From assembly GCF_902764455.1 (NCBI RefSeq), contig NZ_CACWVY010000009.1, positions 1 through 58,610 on the forward strand: a stretch of DNA of 58,610 bases. The letters run 5' to 3'. The stretch comes from an uncultured Methanobrevibacter sp. (GTDB taxonomy: Archaea > Methanobacteriota > Methanobacteria > Methanobacteriales > Methanobacteriaceae). Each line of letters starts with the position of its first letter. Positions within the stretch are counted from its first letter, which is position 1. Under the pieces are notes generated by a model, which was given only the letters and a program-made list of their open reading frames with translations, made no database searches and was not told the DNA's origin. Below, piece after piece: positions 6,347 through 39,862 of the stretch. A program made the position numbers and the translations under genes.

Positions 6347-7801
6347 TCAATTCCCACCACCACCTAAAAAGAAATCTTTAAGTTTACTTTCATCAATTTT
6401 ATAATTACCCGCAATTTTGCCCTGATCAAAATGAATTATATGAGAGCATACCTCACAAATCAATTCAAAATCATGAGTTATGATAAAAGAAGTAATTCCT
6501 AAACTCTGCAAATACCTTAAGTTATCAGAAACTTTTATCATATTTTTTAAGTCAAGCCCACTTGTCGGTTCATCAAAAATCAATATCTCTTTTTTAGATG
6601 CAATAGCTGATGCAATTGCCACCCTCTGCTTTTCACCACCAGATAATGCCATCGGATGGGCATCTTTTAGATGAATCAGATTTAGATTTCTAAGAATTTC
6701 TTCAGCCAAATCCACATCCTCCTCATCCATGCTTAGCAGCACTTCATCTAGAACACTTTCTGTGAATAATTGATGATTGACATCCTGCATTACCATATAA
6801 GATTTTTTAAGCCTATCCTTTCTCTTTAGAGATTTTCCATTACAAATTAGCTCACCTTTACATGATTTTTTAAGACCGCATAAACAGTTGGCGAATGTTG
6901 ATTTTCCAGCGCCATTCTTACCAATAATAGCTATTATTTCATTTTTTGGAACTTTAACATCATCAATGTCTAAAACTTGAGTTTTGCCATAATTAAATTT
7001 GAAATTTTTAAGTTCTAAAAATTCATGATTATCGGAATAATATTCTTTATGTTTAAACTGCAAATTATCCAAGTTTAATTGTCTTAATCCTAAATTTCTA
7101 TGATTTAAATTTTTAAATTCCTCAATTGACCACTCATTATTGACTTTTCCATTTTTTATAAAAATAACTCTATCAACCACATCATTTAAAAAGAATAGTT
7201 TATGCTCAGCAATAATTACCGTCTTTCCTTGTTCTTTCCATTTTTTAATAATATTTTCAAAATCCCAGCTTGACCTGAAATCCAAGTTAGAAGAAGGCTC
7301 ATCCAAAACAAAAATATCCGGACAAACTGCAGATACTGATGCACATGCAATTTTTTGCTTTTCACCTCCAGATAATTTAAAAATATTTTTATCAATCAAA
7401 TTTTTAATGTTAAATTCATCCACTACACTATTGAATCTCTTTTTAATCTCATCAACATCCATTGCTAGATTTTCACATCCAAAAACAATTTCTGAAGTTG
7501 TATCAACATTAAAAAATTGGGTTTTGGGGTTTTGAAAAACAGACCCTACATGTTTTGAAATTTCATATATCGGCATTTCACTAATTAGACCATTTTTTAA
7601 ATAGACATTTCCTTCACGCTCCCCATTAAAGAAATTAGGAATTAATCCATTTAAAAAGCGTGTAATCGTTGTTTTTCCGCATCCGGACTCACCACAGAGC
7701 AGAATAACTTCTCCTTTTTTAATGTTTAAATTAATATCAGTTAAATTTTGGGCAGTACCATTGTTTTCATAGGTAAATGAAACATCTTCCATTTTAAGCA
7801 A
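6347..7801 (-). CDS. ECF transporter ATPase, two fused ABC domains
   Basis: Energises the ECF importer. In 484 residues it holds two complete nucleotide-binding domains. Domain 1 has Walker A GESGCGKTT (37-45), signature LSGGEKQK and Walker B IFVLDEPSSNLD. Domain 2 has Walker A GKNGAGKST (about 295), signature LSGGEKQR and Walker B ILIFDEPTSGLD. Each domain has an H-loop histidine (IIAEHK, FIITHDFE). Most ECF systems use two separate EcfA proteins, and the fused form is common in Trep_Strep/MptD-type clusters. The start overlaps the end of the T-component gene by eight bases, which indicates translational coupling. It is the last gene of the five-gene operon. Confidence 0.93.
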   Translation of the reverse strand: MLKMEDVSFTYENNGTAQNLTDINLNIKKGEVILLCGESGCGKTTITRFLNGLIPNFFNGEREGNVYLKNGLISEMPIYEISKHVGSVFQNPKTQFFNVDTTSEIVFGCENLAMDVDEIKKRFNSVVDEFNIKNLIDKNIFKLSGGEKQKIACASVSAVCPDIFVLDEPSSNLDFRSSWDFENIIKKWKEQGKTVIIAEHKLFFLNDVVDRVIFIKNGKVNNEWSIEEFKNLNHRNLGLRQLNLDNLQFKHKEYYSDNHEFLELKNFKFNYGKTQVLDIDDVKVPKNEIIAIIGKNGAGKSTFANCLCGLKKSCKGELICNGKSLKRKDRLKKSYMVMQDVNHQLFTESVLDEVLLSMDEEDVDLAEEILRNLNLIHLKDAHPMALSGGEKQRVAIASAIASKKEILIFDEPTSGLDLKNMIKVSDNLRYLQSLGITSFIITHDFELICEVCSHIIHFDQGKIAGNYKIDESKLKDFFLGGGGN

Positions 7802-22436: not shown

Positions 22437-24422
22437 ATGAGAGATATTGACGAGCTTAAAAAAACACCAGGACTATCGCTTAAAAGGTATTTGATACTAT
22501 TCATTGCAAATTTAATAGGATTGTATTTGATTAACTTTGGATTGGATTTTAAATTAACCAACTTGAATAATGTTATCATATTCATATTCTTCATTTCTAT
22601 TATTAATGCGATATTATGGCCACTTCTAACAAAGTTATTAATGCCCTTTTTTGTTTGGACTTTCGGAATAGCAGCTCTCGCTTTAAATGGAGGGCTAATT
22701 GCATTTTTCGGACCATATTTCGGTTTACACATAGAGGGAATATGGATAATTTTAACACCATTAATAATATCATTAATTTCCATTATTCTATCAACCATAT
22801 TTGCAATTAAGGATGATGAATATTATCAATCTGTTTTAAGGGAAGCACAAAGGAAAAGAAAAGGAGATATTAAAGATTATCCCGGACTTATAATCGTGGA
22901 AATCGACGGGCTTGCATATGACGTTTTATGTGAAGCTATCAAAAAGGGTTATATGCCAACCGTCAAGTCAATGCTGGATAATAAAACCCATACCCTTAAA
23001 AAATGGGAAACAGATTTGTCTTCACAGACAGGAGCCAGTCAGGCAGGAATCCTGCATGGAAATAATGAAGATATCACAGCTTTTAGATGGGTTGAAAAAG
23101 AAAATGACAATCAAATAATGCAATGTTCAGGAGTTACAAAAGTCAAAATACTTGAAGAAAGAATATCTGATGGAAATGGATTGCTTGTTGAAAATGGAGC
23201 GAGCAGATCCAATCTATTTTCAGGGGATACAGACAATGTAATCTTCACTTTCAGTAAAATAACAGATATGAAAAAACTATATAACAACGCATGGTATTCC
23301 ATTTTTTCAAATCCCAACAATTTCGCACGTATAGTCGTGTTGCTCATTGAAGATATGATTCATGAAATATATTCCCAATTGAAACACAAAATATTAAACA
23401 TCAGACCAAGAATTTCACGAGGAATCGCATATATTCCAACAAGAGCCGGAACAAATGTATTCATGAGAGAAATCAACACCGAAACATTAATTGGGGACAT
23501 GATGATTGGAGATATAGATGTTGCATATTCCACATATCTGGGTTATGATGAAATTGCACACCATTCCGGAGTTAGAGATGAAGATGCATGGTTTGCCCTT
23601 AAAGGAATGGATAAACAGATAAAACGTTTGTTTAATGGAAACAAATATTCTCCAAGAGAATATCAATTCGTAATTCAATCAGATCATGGTCAGACTAATG
23701 GTGCAACATTCAAACAGAGATACGGACAATCATTTGAAGACTTTATCAAATCGCTGATTCCTCAAGACATTAACATGTATGCGGAAATGTCTTCAAACGA
23801 AGACCATTTTGCGGAGGTATACATTCCATTTTCAGATAAAATCAAATACTTTAAAAACAAAAGAAAAGCGTATAAAGAACAAAAGTTATTAGAATCTGAA
23901 ATCGTTGTTCTTGCCTCTGGAAATCTGGCTATGATTTATCTAACCCAATGGGGCCACAGACTAACATATGAAGAAATCAACGAAAAGTTTCCAGATATGA
24001 TTAATAAAATCATAGATAATGAATACATAGGATTTGTTTTAGTCCGTTCATCACAAAAAGGAGACATGGCAATAGGTAAAAACGGAACATACTACCTGGA
24101 TACTGATGAAATTGAAGGAGAAAATCCACTCAAAGGATTTGGAAACAATATTGTTCAACATTTAAAAAGAAACAGTTCATTTAAATACACACCTGACATT
24201 TTGGTCAACAGCTTTTATGATGCTGAAAATGATGAGGTTTGTGCCTTTGAAGAGCTGGTTGGAAGCCATGGAGGAGTTGGAGGAAGCCAATCCGAACCAT
24301 TTATTTTATATCCTTCAGAATGGAATCTTCCCGATGAAGAAATTGTAGGTGCTGAAAACATCTACAGAATACTGAAAACAAATTTAGGCAATATTAAAAA
24401 AAGTGGTGAAACTGATAAGTGA
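22437..24422 (+). CDS. Fusion: YvlD/holin-like membrane domain plus alkaline-phosphatase-fold phosphodiesterase
   Basis: A 661-residue two-part protein. Residues 1-125 contain about four membrane helices of the phage-holin-4/YvlD type (IINAILWPLLTKLLMP, then GLHIEGIWIILTPLIISL). From about 150 an alkaline phosphatase superfamily domain begins (LIIVEIDGLAYDVLCEAI). It has TGASQAGILHGN in the nucleophile region, DEIAHHSG and IQSDHGQTNG as metal ligands, and SHGGVGG near the end. It may cleave phosphodiesters of lipid- or sugar-linked substrates at the membrane face. Bacteria have similar holin-phosphatase fusions. It stands alone, and the substrate is unknown. Confidence 0.85.
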   Translation: MRDIDELKKTPGLSLKRYLILFIANLIGLYLINFGLDFKLTNLNNVIIFIFFISIINAILWPLLTKLLMPFFVWTFGIAALALNGGLIAFFGPYFGLHIEGIWIILTPLIISLISIILSTIFAIKDDEYYQSVLREAQRKRKGDIKDYPGLIIVEIDGLAYDVLCEAIKKGYMPTVKSMLDNKTHTLKKWETDLSSQTGASQAGILHGNNEDITAFRWVEKENDNQIMQCSGVTKVKILEERISDGNGLLVENGASRSNLFSGDTDNVIFTFSKITDMKKLYNNAWYSIFSNPNNFARIVVLLIEDMIHEIYSQLKHKILNIRPRISRGIAYIPTRAGTNVFMREINTETLIGDMMIGDIDVAYSTYLGYDEIAHHSGVRDEDAWFALKGMDKQIKRLFNGNKYSPREYQFVIQSDHGQTNGATFKQRYGQSFEDFIKSLIPQDINMYAEMSSNEDHFAEVYIPFSDKIKYFKNKRKAYKEQKLLESEIVVLASGNLAMIYLTQWGHRLTYEEINEKFPDMINKIIDNEYIGFVLVRSSQKGDMAIGKNGTYYLDTDEIEGENPLKGFGNNIVQHLKRNSSFKYTPDILVNSFYDAENDEVCAFEELVGSHGGVGGSQSEPFILYPSEWNLPDEEIVGAENIYRILKTNLGNIKKSGETDK

Positions 24423-30069: not shown

Positions 30070-33000
30070 CTATTTATCATCAGAAGAATCTGCAATTTCA
30101 GGAGCGGCAGTTTTCATAAACATGCCTAAGAACTGATTCAAGAATTCTGATAAATCAAAACCATACATATCCAAGATGGATAAAATAACTTCAATATCAA
30201 ATCCAGCTACATCCAGACTAGTTAATAAAGCAGACATATCAAGTTCATCTACATCAAAACTAACTATTAGTCCGGACATATCAAGTTCATCCCAGTTAAT
30301 ATAACCTACTTTTAACAAAGCGTTAGCAGCAGTCATGACAAATTCAGAATTACGTAATATGTCAATAACATCTGACAATCTAATTTCAGAGAGGTCATAA
30401 CCTTTCAAATTAATATCCAAACTATCAAAATCAATATCCACTGAACCAACCACTTCAGATAAGTCAAGCACTACTGCATCTAAACAGGAATAATCACAGT
30501 TTTCAAGCATAGCAGCTAAATCAAAGTCTGGATTTTCAAACATCTCTGAAATAGCAGTAAGGTCATCAAGGGATATATTGAAACTGGCTAATAAAGCAGA
30601 CATGTCAATATTTTCAAAGTCGATACTTTTTATTAATCCTTCTAAATCAAGGTCATCTATTTCAAGACCTGCTAATTTTAACAAGACTGCAACAGTAGAC
30701 ATGTCAAACTCATAATTATTGAAGATATCAATAAGGTCAGATAAGCTAATTGCAGACACGTCATAATCGGACAGGTCAATACCTAAAGCAGCCAAATCAA
30801 TGCCTAATGAATCAATCAATCCAGATAAATCAAGCACAATTGCACCGAAACAGGAATAATCAAAGTTTCTAAATATTGCATCTAAATCAATGTCAGAATT
30901 AGTGAATATTTCTAAAATCTTTGAAAGGTCATCGCTGGATAAATTAAGACCAGCTAATATAGCAGATATGTCAAAGTTTTCAACATCAAAACTGGCTATT
31001 AAACCTTCCAAATCAAGATCATCTACATCAACGCCCACTAATTTTAACAAGGCCGCAAGGGTAGACATGTCAAACTCGCAATTATTAAGGATATCAATAA
31101 GATCTGACAATTTGATTGCAGATAAATCATAATCAGACAGGTCAATGCCTAAATCAGCTAAATCAATACCTAATGAATCAATTAAACCGCTTAAATTAAG
31201 TTCAATTGCACCGAAACAGGAATGATCACAGTTTTCAAATACAGCATCTAAATTAAGGTCCGGATTATTGAATATTTCTATAATAGCAGAAAGGTCCTCG
31301 CTTGATATATTAAGACTTGCTAATACAGGAGATATGTCAAAGTTTTCAGCATCAAAACTGGCAATTAAACTGGACACATCAAGTCCGCCAATGTCAATAC
31401 TGGATAAGTCAAACTCGGACATGTCATAATCAGGATTATTAAAGATACCGATAAGATCTGGCAGACTAATTGCAGAGAAGTCATAATCGGACTCATCAAT
31501 ACCAAATTCAGCTAAATCAATGCCTGCGGAATCAATCAATCCTGATAAATCAAGCACCATTCCATCCAAACTTGAATAATCACAGTTTTCAAACATGCTT
31601 TCCCAATCAATGTCTGAATTTTCAAACATGGAGGTAATGCCTTCAATATCCAATTTTTCTAAATTAAGACTGGCTAATAAACTGGACATGTCAAAGTTTT
31701 CAGCATCAAAACTGGTAATTAAACCTTCTAAATCAAGTTTTTCCACATCAAGACCTAATAATTTTAACACTGCGGAAATAGTAGCCATGTCAAACTCAGA
31801 ATTATTAAATATTTCCATAATTTCTGACAATTTTATTGCAGACACATCATAATCAGACAGGTCAATACCTAAAGCAGCCAAATCAATGCCTAATGAATCA
31901 ATCAATCCAGATAAATTAAGCTCAATTGCATCCAAACAGGAATAATCAAAGTTTTCAAATATTTTTTCAAAGTCAAGGTCTGAATTATTGAACATGTCAA
32001 TAATAGCAGAAATATCCTCAAGGGATATATTAAGACTTGCTAATAAAGCAGATATGTCAAAGTTTTCAGCATCAAAACTTTTTATTAAACCTTCCAAATC
32101 AAGTTCATCAACGTCAATACCTAATAATTTTAACACTGCGGAAATAGTGGACATATCAAACTCAAAAGTATCTAGGATAGCCATAATTTCTGACAATCTA
32201 ATTGCAGATAAATCAAGATTTTCTATGTCAATACCTAAAGCAGCCAAATCAATGCCTAATGAATCAATCAATCCTGATAAATCAAGCACAATTGTGTCTA
32301 AAATTGAATAATCAAAGTTTTCAAATATTTTTCCTAAGTCAAGGTCTGAATTTTCTAGCATGTCTAAAATAGCAGAAATATCCTCGCTGGATAAATTAAG
32401 ACTAGCTAATAAACCTGATATATCAAAGTTTTCAAAGTCTATTTTAATTACTATAGTGGACAGGTCAATATTTTCTAAGCCACTAGTTAATAAATTTAAA
32501 ACAGATGTAATGGCAGGAATGCTAAACACGGAATTATTCAATGCATCAACAATTTCCGGCACGCTGATTGCAGACACATCATAATCGGACAGGTCAATAC
32601 CAAACTCGGCTAAATCAATGCCTGCGGAATCAATCAATCCTGATAAATCAAGCACAATTGAGTCTAAACTTGAATAATCAAAGTTCTCAAATATGCCTGC
32701 TATACCAGAGGCTAAATCTGATATGCCTGCACTAGACATGTCATCAGCATCGACGAAGGAACCTTTATAAAAGCTAGACATATTCCTAGTGTAAGTATCA
32801 ATATCAAATCCTGAACTTAAAAGAGCAGCAAGGGCTAATAAATCCATTTGATAAACATCTAAAGGAGATATATGACCAACCATATTAACAGGGAATTCAC
32901 CATCATCAGTAGTATTTTTAAAGTTAACACAATCAATATTTAACATTGGGAACAATTCATCGAAAGTTACACCAACAAAATCAAAACTATCCATACCAAT

Positions 33001-33996
33001 AACTACATCAAAACTACTTGCATCTACAATAGGGTCAAGACACACATTTACATTATCCATATTAACATGAACATCATCAAAGTTTGTGTACTTGAAATCA
33101 GCCATGGATACAGATAACTCAAGATCGGATAAATTTAAATCGGCAAGTGCAATATTCAGATTTAAATCAGATACGCTTACCTTATAGTCTTTGCTTATGA
33201 GATTTAATGAAGGTAAGTTTATGGATATATTTAGTTTTTGTTCGTCCGCTCCTATTGCCATATTGAAGTCAAGATTCTCAAAGTTGAAAGTTCCATTATT
33301 AAAGTTAGGATATAAAAAGTTGCTTATTTTAACATCTAAAGTTATACCGTTTTCATCAGGGAAAGCTTTGAATATGAAATCAAGGTCTTTTAAATTTATG
33401 TAATCTCTTTCAGTTATTACCTCCAAACTATTCAAAAGTGCTGAAAGTTCAAGACTTTTTGAAACTGAACTTGGCAGAATAGATAAATCAAGACCTTTAA
33501 ATGTAAATACAGTACTTTCAAAGTCAGTATAGGAAACTTCAGGAATATTCATTTTTAAATCAACATTTGAAGAATCTGAAGCAGCTACAATTGACATAGT
33601 GGAATCAGACATGCTCAAACCGTTTTGGGTAAAACCTTCAATATTTAAGCTGGTATCCCCTCCCTCGGAGATTTTGTCCTTAATAGCTAACTCATCATAA
33701 TTAATCCCAAAGCCGCTAAGTGCAGAAGTTACAGGGTCTTCAGCAACTTGAGGAGATAAATCTACTTTTTCAACTTCACTTTCTTCATTGGATGCTTCAC
33801 CGAAATCATCATTCAATATAGGTAAAACTCTTTCAACGAGATCTTTCTTTTTACCTGAAGTACTTAGACCGTTTTCTTTTAAGATGACTCTTAATTCTGC
33901 AACGGTGTATTTATTAGATACTTCCTTGGCAGTTAATACTTCAAAATTTGAATCTTCCTCAGATTCAACATTTAAATTTTTTTTCTTTTTAGTCAT
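30070..33996 (-). CDS. Giant SAP-domain protein with seven 122-residue acidic repeats
   Basis: A 1308-residue protein that I do not recognise as a whole. After a basic start (KKKKN), residues 30-62 form a SAP domain (YTVAELRVILKENGL, STSGKKKDLVERV), a helix-turn-helix nucleic-acid-binding motif. Residues 80-430 are a Asp/Asn/Leu-rich region with strand-like repeats (DLNLNIALADLNLSDLELSV). Seven tandem repeats follow from residue 436 to near the end. No signal peptide or membrane helix is visible, so it should be cytoplasmic. The protein is strongly acidic with regular Leu/Ile spacing, as in solenoids. Binding nucleic acid through SAP while presenting a long acidic solenoid is inference. It is monocistronic with long flanking spacers. 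Confidence 0.9.
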   Translation of the reverse strand: MTKKKKNLNVESEEDSNFEVLTAKEVSNKYTVAELRVILKENGLSTSGKKKDLVERVLPILNDDFGEASNEESEVEKVDLSPQVAEDPVTSALSGFGINYDELAIKDKISEGGDTSLNIEGFTQNGLSMSDSTMSIVAASDSSNVDLKMNIPEVSYTDFESTVFTFKGLDLSILPSSVSKSLELSALLNSLEVITERDYINLKDLDFIFKAFPDENGITLDVKISNFLYPNFNNGTFNFENLDFNMAIGADEQKLNISINLPSLNLISKDYKVSVSDLNLNIALADLNLSDLELSVSMADFKYTNFDDVHVNMDNVNVCLDPIVDASSFDVVIGMDSFDFVGVTFDELFPMLNIDCVNFKNTTDDGEFPVNMVGHISPLDVYQMDLLALAALLSSGFDIDTYTRNMSSFYKGSFVDADDMSSAGISDLASGIAGIFENFDYSSLDSIVLDLSGLIDSAGIDLAEFGIDLSDYDVSAISVPEIVDALNNSVFSIPAITSVLNLLTSGLENIDLSTIVIKIDFENFDISGLLASLNLSSEDISAILDMLENSDLDLGKIFENFDYSILDTIVLDLSGLIDSLGIDLAALGIDIENLDLSAIRLSEIMAILDTFEFDMSTISAVLKLLGIDVDELDLEGLIKSFDAENFDISALLASLNISLEDISAIIDMFNNSDLDFEKIFENFDYSCLDAIELNLSGLIDSLGIDLAALGIDLSDYDVSAIKLSEIMEIFNNSEFDMATISAVLKLLGLDVEKLDLEGLITSFDAENFDMSSLLASLNLEKLDIEGITSMFENSDIDWESMFENCDYSSLDGMVLDLSGLIDSAGIDLAEFGIDESDYDFSAISLPDLIGIFNNPDYDMSEFDLSSIDIGGLDVSSLIASFDAENFDISPVLASLNISSEDLSAIIEIFNNPDLNLDAVFENCDHSCFGAIELNLSGLIDSLGIDLADLGIDLSDYDLSAIKLSDLIDILNNCEFDMSTLAALLKLVGVDVDDLDLEGLIASFDVENFDISAILAGLNLSSDDLSKILEIFTNSDIDLDAIFRNFDYSCFGAIVLDLSGLIDSLGIDLAALGIDLSDYDVSAISLSDLIDIFNNYEFDMSTVAVLLKLAGLEIDDLDLEGLIKSIDFENIDMSALLASFNISLDDLTAISEMFENPDFDLAAMLENCDYSCLDAVVLDLSEVVGSVDIDFDSLDINLKGYDLSEIRLSDVIDILRNSEFVMTAANALLKVGYINWDELDMSGLIVSFDVDELDMSALLTSLDVAGFDIEVILSILDMYGFDLSEFLNQFLGMFMKTAAPEIADSSDDK
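30142..32691 (-). repeat. Seven tandem 366-bp repeats inside the SAP gene
   Basis: Units start (minus strand) at 32691, 32325, 31959, 31593, 31239, 30873 and 30507. The spacing is exactly 366 bp except for unit 4, which is 354 bp (four residues fewer). Each unit encodes FEN(F/C)DYS...LDLSGLIDS, GIDLAALGIDLSDYD, SAIKLSDL, NNSEFDM, LDLEGLI(K/A)SFD and ENFDISALLASLN(I/L)S. Units 2, 3, 5 and 6 are closest to each other. The last unit is the most diverged. Confidence 0.92.
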
Positions 33997-34507
33997 AATA
34001 TCATTTCCATAAACGAGCCTATAATAAATAATTTTATTTGTATAATATTTAAATTTGTTGATATAATTTAAACATTATTTAATTTATAATTCTTAAAATA
34101 AACAAAATATTATAAAATTAATATATTTATTTAAATTATTGAAAATTTTTTTAAAAAAAAAAATTCAATTATAATTTAGTCGGAAAAAATTAAAAAAAAT
34201 ATCAAAATTGAACAGAATAATATACAAAATTTCCATAATTATAACATTGAAAAATATAATTAATAAAAAAAATAAAAAATTAAAAAAATATAAAAATTAT
34301 TGTACAATTTAATAAAATTTATATTATATACCTGCAATATTCACTCACAGTGGGAATTGAATTGCGAAGTCAAGAACACAATTATTTTTATCTTAAAACT
34401 ACAATCATCAAAAATCCAACATATGCTCATATTTATCCAGCAATACATATTTTGTTAAAATATTTCCCATTTATCTTTTAAAAATGCTTTTGTTTCAATC
34501 AGAAAAT
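33997..34507. other. Extremely AT-rich spacer upstream of the SAP gene
   Basis: About 510 bp, very low in G and C between 34020 and 34330. A TATA-like ATTTAAATATTATAC on the minus strand near 34040-34055 could drive the SAP gene. No coding frame, repeat or RNA-like fold was convincing. Confidence 0.45.
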
Positions 34508-39013: not shown

Positions 39014-39532
39014 GATTTTTTCTTTTAATAGCATGAGGCATTATGTAACATGCCTACCAGTGATTATCTCAGTTTAAAATTGTACTTTTATTAAATTGAT
39101 TTATTGATAAATTATTTTTATATAGAAATTAAAAACATGTTGAATCATTTATCAACATTTTTACTAAACTGTATCTTCAATCTATTGCCCAGGAATTAAT
39201 GTTGCCCCAAAAATAACAATTTCATATTAATTGCATAACCCTAATAAAAATTTAGGAACTTTAAAAGCCAATTTTCCCAATGACTTTCGTTATCAGTTAC
39301 TGTTTAAATTAATTTTCAAAGATAAATACTTGATTTAAGGTAAAGACTATTTTAATTAAGTTAGATTATAAAATCAACATAGTTTTTAAAATAATCCTAT
39401 TTTTTGAATATCTTTTAATTAATATCTTTTTTAATTATATGAAAATTAAGTAATTTATAATAAATAGGGCAAAATTTTAATAATACAATATTGATATAAT
39501 AATATAAAACTATTATAAAGGAGGTGAAAAAT
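39014..39532. other. Spacer with hairpins before the histone gene
   Basis: Holds AGGCAT/ATGCCT (39036-39041/39050-39055) and a terminator-like hairpin ATGTTGA/TCAACAT (39137-39143/39152-39158) flanked by A5 and T5. This could mark a short transcript between the adhesin and the histone. A long AT-rich stretch with the histone promoter follows. No coding frame seen. Confidence 0.4.
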
Positions 39533-39862
39533 ATGGCAATTCCTAAGGCTCCTGTAAAAAGAATCATCCAAGAAGCTGGCGCTGAAAGAGTAAGTGCTGA
39601 TGCAGTAGATGCATTAGTTGAATACTTAGAAGATTACGCAGAAGATGTCTCTAAAAAAGCAGTTACCTATTCAAAATATGCAAAAAGAAAAACTGTAAAA
39701 GCAGAAGATATTGCTTTGGCTATTGATAGTTCAAAAACTTCTGAATCTCCTAATGAGAATAAACACAATATCTTAGACGTAATCAAAAATGTATTTGATG
39801 CTGCAAAAGAAGGACAAGGTATTGAAGAAATCATCAAATCATTTAAGAAATTGGAAAAATGA
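39533..39862 (+). CDS. Archaeal histone with a C-terminal extension
   Basis: DNA-wrapping protein of 109 residues. The first 67 or so form a complete histone fold (APVKRIIQEAGAERVSADAV, then AKRKTVKAEDIALAID), close to HMf-type histones. A 40-residue tail follows: a polar linker (SSKTSESPNENKH) and an amphipathic helix (ILDVIKNVFDAAKEG, EEIIKSFKKLEK). I start at ATG 39533, since AAAGGAGGTGA ends a few bases before it. The GTG three codons upstream lies inside that ribosome site. The tail could dimerise or cap the polymer, which is inference. A strong terminator follows. Confidence 0.95.
   Translation: MAIPKAPVKRIIQEAGAERVSADAVDALVEYLEDYAEDVSKKAVTYSKYAKRKTVKAEDIALAIDSSKTSESPNENKHNILDVIKNVFDAAKEGQGIEEIIKSFKKLEK

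What the first reader, a model, noticed from the sequence alone, without database searches (positions are those of the whole stretch)
30070..33996. 1308-residue cytoplasmic SAP protein with seven 122-residue acidic repeats
Seen: an N-terminal SAP domain, a strand-rich middle, then seven repeats at an exact 366-bp period (one unit 12 bp shorter). The protein has no signal peptide or membrane helix and very many Asp, Leu, Ile and Ser residues. I know of no described family with this layout. A nucleic-acid-binding head with a long acidic solenoid could be a chromosome-organising scaffold, a DNA mimic or a cytoskeletal element.
Basis: partly seen in the sequence, partly recalled or inferred. Interest (0 to 1): 0.75.

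Follow-up and report, generated by a model that had tools for sequence, protein, structure and literature searches.

The report
DNA-tethered cousin of a surface protein
A gut methanogen makes a 1308-residue, very acidic protein that stays inside the cell and carries a putative DNA-binding tip where its close relatives carry an export signal, and the species that have it mostly also have an unusual long-tailed histone, which hints at an undescribed chromosome-associated protein.

Summary
In detail: one intact ORF on the minus strand, a true SAP module at the N-terminus, a strand-rich middle and seven repeats (122,122,122,118,122,122 residues apart, the seventh diverged). It is a small, sporadic family in Methanobrevibacter: the middle domain is in only 11 of 151 Methanobacteriales species genomes. 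(1) The same middle domain plus one repeat occurs in exported relatives that start with a signal peptide instead of SAP. All SAP-fronted proteins form one side of a tree branch (100/100), have lost the sequon excess of the exported forms, are about twice as acidic, and have 5-7 repeats instead of one. So the gene looks like an intracellular, SAP-fronted, repeat-amplified offshoot of a surface-protein family. (2) It co-occurs with a rare 'tailed' histone (8 shared of 11 and 11, in 151 genomes), which lies 0.5-5.5 kb away in three genomes including this one. The repeat fold could not be predicted (pLDDT 39), so 'solenoid' is unproven. I favour a nucleoid-tethered acidic scaffold. Cytosolic SAP-form architecture is well supported; the chromatin role is inference.

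The parts
30070..33996 (-). Whole gene, 1308 aa SAP-fronted acidic repeat protein
   Evidence: ORF; orthologues in three genera; dN/dS about 0.23
33997..34116 (-). Upstream region with conserved AT-rich promoter-like blocks and a conserved GGAAATGATATYATG start context
   Evidence: Side-by-side upstream sequences of seven SAP-form genes; read by eye, no transcription data
33802..33942 (-). SAP module, residues 19-65 (extra helix plus helix-loop-helix)
   Evidence: PF02037; AF2 helices 23-29, 32-41, 50-61 at pLDDT about 76-83; 54% identical to the SAP module of the 311-aa protein of the same genome, up to 65% to its counterparts across the genus
33715..33801 (-). Fast-evolving acidic linker, residues 66-94
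   Evidence: dN/dS 0.3-0.9, pLDDT below 50
32797..33714 (-). Middle domain, residues 95-400, antiparallel beta-meander shared with exported relatives
   Evidence: Alignment A1; about 11 long strands at pLDDT mostly 70-84; no significant PDB fold match
32692..32796 (-). Hinge, residues 401-435, low confidence
   Evidence: Gapped in alignments, pLDDT 30-43
32326..32691 (-). Repeat 1 (residues 436-557)
31960..32325 (-). Repeat 2 (558-679)
31594..31959 (-). Repeat 3 (680-801)
31240..31593 (-). Repeat 4 (802-919), the short 118-residue unit; also the short one in most other seven-repeat relatives
30874..31239 (-). Repeat 5 (920-1041)
30508..30873 (-). Repeat 6 (1042-1163)
30148..30507 (-). Repeat 7 (1164-1283), diverged
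30070..30147 (-). C-terminal segment (1284-1308 and stop), hydrophobic FLNQFLGMFMK stretch kept in relatives
   Evidence: sequences
39524..39862 (+). Tailed archaeal histone, 112 aa: histone fold plus about 40-residue conserved C-terminal tail; co-occurs with the SAP-form gene
22437..24422 (+). Membrane type I phosphodiesterase-like gene; its close orthologues lie near SAP-form genes in five species
   Evidence: Pfam; neighbourhoods

Best explanation
The gene encodes a cytosolic, SAP-fronted and repeat-amplified offshoot of an exported Methanobrevibacter protein family. Shown by sequence: the signal peptide of the exported relatives is replaced by a SAP module, the sequon excess is gone, acidity is doubled and one repeat has become five to seven. 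Inferred: the SAP module tethers the protein to the nucleoid (DNA, or possibly RNA), and the beta domain and acidic repeat rod project from it as a scaffold that excludes or organises other chromatin proteins. The tailed histone with which it co-occurs, acting through its conserved C-terminal tail, is the most likely partner.
For: SAP match well over cut-off and SAP-like helices in the model. Exported homologues with signal peptides in four species, plus a fragment in a fifth, sharing 28-51% of the middle domain. SAP forms are one side of a branch, 100/100. Sequons: SAP forms about 1 per 100 aa, roughly the shuffled expectation; SP forms 3-6 per 100 aa, about twice expectation, like the exported adhesins of the window at 3.1-3.4. 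Net charge -15 to -17 against -7 to -9 per 100 aa, and Asp is the commonest SAP-form residue at SP-form sequon columns. Five to seven repeats against one. The tailed histone shares 8 of 11 and 11 genomes out of 151 (Fisher 4.6e-9; 3e-5 in the window's genus; 1e-3 in a second genus, where it is in exactly the three SAP-form genomes of 19). Both traits are scattered on a GatE tree, so this is not a single clade. The exported form does not track the histone: one of five genomes. Histone and SAP gene are 0.5 kb apart in G063, 2.2 kb in G014, 5.5 kb here. In G097 both genes are interrupted.
Against: No binding data. SAP domains can also bind RNA or protein, and in several relatives the module is close to neutral. 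The histone is not net basic (fold about 0, whole -1 to -4), so simple electrostatic capture is unlikely. The co-occurrence was found after the fact; tree-aware tests are weak (independent pairs 2.7 to 1.0, not significant; Pagel p 0.003, but with rates at their bounds and a sample enriched in positives). G040, G114 and G126 have the SAP form without the tailed histone; G013, G035 and G051 the reverse. In most genomes the two genes are not neighbours. The direction 'exported to cytosolic' rests on midpoint rooting with one long branch.
Confidence: 0.4

Rival explanations
1. Cytosolic offshoot of a surface protein with no chromosomal role: the SAP module serves as a generic protein-protein or RNA contact, and the acidic body is a soluble scaffold, sponge or decoy. 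The tailed histone travels with it only because both belong to a common pool of accessory genes in rumen strains.
For: The family is sporadic (11 of 151 species) and sits beside accessory genes such as adhesins, MFS exporters and a phosphodiesterase. Tree-aware association tests are weak. The phosphodiesterase orthologue also tracks the SAP form.
Against: The histone association repeats in a second genus where the two genes are far apart (G085 about 0.7 Mb), and the exported form does not show it.
Confidence: 0.35
2. The acidic repeat body is a DNA mimic that sequesters DNA-binding proteins, as an anti-restriction or histone-chaperone-like protein.
For: Net charge -16 per 100 aa over more than 1200 residues; histone co-occurrence.
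Against: The co-occurring histone is not net basic. A SAP tether to DNA is not needed by a soluble mimic. The body is shared with surface proteins. No fold match to known mimics, no virus or plasmid copies.
Confidence: 0.12
3. The protein acts at the cell surface after all, leaving the cell by a non-Sec route or by lysis, with SAP binding extracellular DNA.
For: Its body is homologous to exported proteins, and one SAP form (G008) even ends with the C-terminal module of exported proteins.
Against: No signal peptide in any intact SAP form, sequons at chance level, more Cys than exported relatives.
Confidence: 0.1

Closest known systems
SAP domain proteins (Pfam PF02037)
   Same: A canonical helix-loop-helix SAP module with the GLxxxGxKxxLxxR core, well over the Pfam cut-off
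   Different: Known SAP proteins I can name (SAF-A, Ku70, PIAS, FAN1; own knowledge) attach it to enzymes or other domains; none has this beta domain or these repeats
311-aa SAP protein conserved across the genus (L002 here)
   Same: SAP module including the preceding helix is 54% identical in the same genome, up to 65% across the genus
   Different: SAP is internal, the rest unrelated, no repeats; it is present in most genomes of the genus, whereas the long protein is rare
Exported Methanobrevibacter relatives (L034 8014-9978, L037 4751-6697, L038 6765-8714, L048 6181-8121)
   Same: Middle beta domain and one copy of the same repeat
   Different: Signal peptide instead of SAP, sequon-rich, half as acidic, extra C-terminal module that is common in large exported proteins
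Archaeal adhesin-like proteins of Methanobrevibacter and Methanosphaera (PMC11532034)
   Same: Large, repetitive, lineage-specific; the exported relatives probably belong here
   Different: Those have a membrane-anchoring segment, Big-like and beta-helix domains; this protein has no membrane segment and none of those Pfam domains
Archaeal DNA-bridging histones with C-terminal domains (Mc and coiled-coil histones, PMC11390915)
   Same: The neighbouring histone also has a conserved C-terminal extension
   Different: It keeps a nucleosomal-type fold (best PDB match HPhA); its tail sequence was not compared with those families

Membership tests
SAP domain (PF02037) | Profile match over curated cut-off and helix-loop-helix | tested here: met
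   42.3 bits against 23.9; helices 32-41 and 50-61
SAP domain (PF02037) | Binds nucleic acid | not testable with these tools
   Needs gel shift or ChIP
DUF4315 (PF14193) | Full-length match to the 79-position profile | tested here: not met
   39 bits against a cut-off of 27, but as the sum of short stretches in the repeats; best stretch covers positions 30-62 only
DUF945 (PF06097) | Score over curated cut-off and better than unrelated proteins of the same genomes | tested here: not met
   25.6 bits against 26.8 for the middle domain alone; other large ORFs of the order score as well or better, none over cut-off
Archaeal adhesin-like proteins | Signal peptide or membrane anchor | tested here: not met
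   None in the window protein; present in the exported relatives
Pentapeptide-repeat DNA mimics | Pentapeptide profile match | tested here: not met
   No match in this protein; only a just-below-cut-off match in one exported relative
Alpha-solenoid repeat proteins | Regular helical repeat in a confident model or a PDB profile match | tested here: inconclusive
   Short helices but pLDDT 39; no PDB match below E 0.8

The most novel reading that the evidence does not exclude
A surface-protein family was turned into a nucleoid protein by exchanging its signal peptide for a SAP module and multiplying its repeat, and it works together with a tailed histone variant as a two-part, accessory chromatin-organising system in rumen methanogens.
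Probability: 0.25. Interest if true: 0.8.

Novelty: new variant of a known kind. Interest (0 to 1): 0.5.

Why it matters
If right, it is a clear case of a protein changing compartment by an N-terminal module swap, recorded in the fading of its N-glycosylation sites, and it adds a large SAP-tethered protein to the short list of archaeal chromatin factors, with a specific histone variant as candidate partner. Rumen methanogens are the source of livestock methane, and how their chromatin is organised is little studied.

Tried and rejected
DUF945, a bacterial family of unknown function, for the middle domain: all 13 members match weakly, but unrelated large proteins do as well, so it was dropped. 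DUF4315: partial, repeat-summed match, dropped. PDB by sequence: only SAP. PDB by fold: no E below 1e-3; top rows are assorted beta-rich proteins with TM-scores at or below 0.23, not interpretable. The repeat model is too poor to search. Single-protein collection scan found nothing; the alignment scan found five relatives. No viral, phage or plasmid relatives. Papers: none links Methanobrevibacter with SAP domains in the held library. Recent repeat expansion was rejected: repeats are one-to-one orthologous with the nearest relative.

Full report
OBSERVATION. The ORF at 30070-33996 lies on the minus strand and encodes 1308 residues. Repeats of 366 bp with one 354-bp step are found by two programs and start at residues 436, 558, 680, 802, 920, 1042 and 1164. 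SAP is the only Pfam family matched convincingly. The body is extremely acidic (about -16 net charges per 100 residues, pI 4.05). The gene is under purifying selection (dN/dS about 0.23 in SAP, beta domain and repeats alike against the nearest relative G042), and its repeats pair one-to-one with those of that relative. The array is therefore old and maintained, not a recent tandem expansion.

RELATIVES. A protein search finds long relatives in the window's genus and in two further genera of the family; a profile of the middle domain matches only 11 of 151 Methanobacteriales genomes. Named records among them are uncultured Methanobrevibacter MAGs, one from goat ileum. Six of nine SAP-form proteins have seven repeats, including proteins from three genera, two have five, and one is broken by a frameshift; the fourth unit tends to be the short one in the seven-repeat proteins. 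So the layout, including the '12 bp shorter' unit, is ancestral.

EXPORTED COUSINS. Four further proteins (L034, L037, L038, L048), and a fragment in L040, share the middle domain and one repeat but begin with a hydrophobic signal peptide and lack SAP (the fragment lacks its start). They end in a module that recurs at the C-terminus of many large exported proteins. On a tree of the middle domain the SAP forms are one side of a branch with support 100/100. Two independent marks agree that the SAP forms live inside the cell. First, N-glycosylation sequons are about twice the shuffled expectation in the exported forms, as in the exported adhesins of this window, but close to expectation in the SAP forms. 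Second, the SAP forms carry Asp most often where exported forms have sequon Asn, and are twice as acidic. The direction of change (exported first) depends on midpoint rooting and is inferred. The SAP module itself resembles the SAP module of a 311-aa protein found in most genomes of the genus (54% identity within this genome, up to 65% elsewhere), a plausible donor.

STRUCTURE. AlphaFold2 on six sequences gives a SAP fold (pLDDT about 80) and a meander of about eleven long antiparallel strands in the middle domain (mostly 70-84), with low confidence beyond residue 342. No solved structure matches significantly. Three repeats with 13 aligned rows give pLDDT 39. The term 'solenoid' is thus unproven.

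SURROUNDINGS. Neighbours are a divergent adhesin, MFS transporters, two DUF2142 membrane proteins and a membrane phosphodiesterase-like protein. The phosphodiesterase orthologue lies near the SAP-form gene in five species, directly adjacent in two. A 112-aa histone with a conserved C-terminal tail lies at 39524-39862; it also lies 0.5 kb from the SAP-form gene in G063 and 2.2 kb in G014. Searched over 151 genomes, full-length copies of this tailed histone occur in 11, of which 8 also hold the SAP form (11 genomes, two of them known only from fragments at contig ends); Fisher p is 4.6e-9 overall, 3e-5 within the window's genus and 1e-3 within a second genus, where exactly the three SAP-form genomes of 19 have it. 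A GatE tree shows both traits scattered, needing about ten changes each, so one clade does not explain it, but strictly tree-aware tests are weak: independent pairs not significant, Pagel p 0.003 with rates at their bounds. The association was noticed after the fact. The exported form does not share it (1 of 5 genomes). In G097 both genes are interrupted, which may be shared decay or assembly error. The histone is not net basic, so attraction by charge alone is not a good mechanism.

MECHANISM. Shown: cytosolic SAP-fronted architecture shared in its body with exported family members. Likely: SAP tethers the protein to nucleic acid. Inferred: the acidic rod acts as a scaffold at the nucleoid, perhaps together with the tailed histone. 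My confidence is about 0.8 for the architecture and cytosolic location and about 0.4 for the nucleoid scaffold as a whole.

KNOWN OR NEW. SAP domains, adhesin-like proteins and archaeal histones with C-terminal extensions are known (PMC11532034, PMC11390915, PMC6136690). No described family that I could find combines SAP with this body, and no paper in the held library mentions SAP domains with Methanobrevibacter. I file it as a new variant of a known kind: a SAP-tethered protein with a body of new, lineage-specific type.

Noticed in passing
window 39524-39862 (+): Histone with about 40-residue conserved C-terminal tail (KHNILDVIKxVFxAxxEGKGIEEIIKSFKK), present in only 11 of 151 Methanobacteriales genomes; retains a nucleosomal-type fold.
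   Followed up: partly
L051 (G098) and L050 (G097), inside one repeat: An insert of about 70 residues (SGDEPITIGEGVTDAT...KHEGRLSKKEVEEHNKN) interrupts a repeat in two related species; no family assigned.
   Followed up: no
L049 (G085) near 7600: The SAP-form gene has a frame break in an A-rich stretch close to its start; real or sequencing error unknown.
   Followed up: partly
L048 8580-9554 (G114): An exported protein made largely of NMSGM/NFSGM pentads, very Met-rich, with the same C-terminal module as the exported relatives.
   Followed up: no
last ~90 residues of L034, L037, L038, L048 proteins: A C-terminal module that recurs in many large exported proteins, 14 matches in genome G114, with no Pfam name seen; may be a wall-anchoring or sorting domain.
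   Followed up: partly
window 22437-24422: Fusion of a four-helix holin-like membrane segment with a type I phosphodiesterase, with one to four strong matches (E <= 1e-100) in 62 of 67 genomes of the genus.
   Followed up: partly
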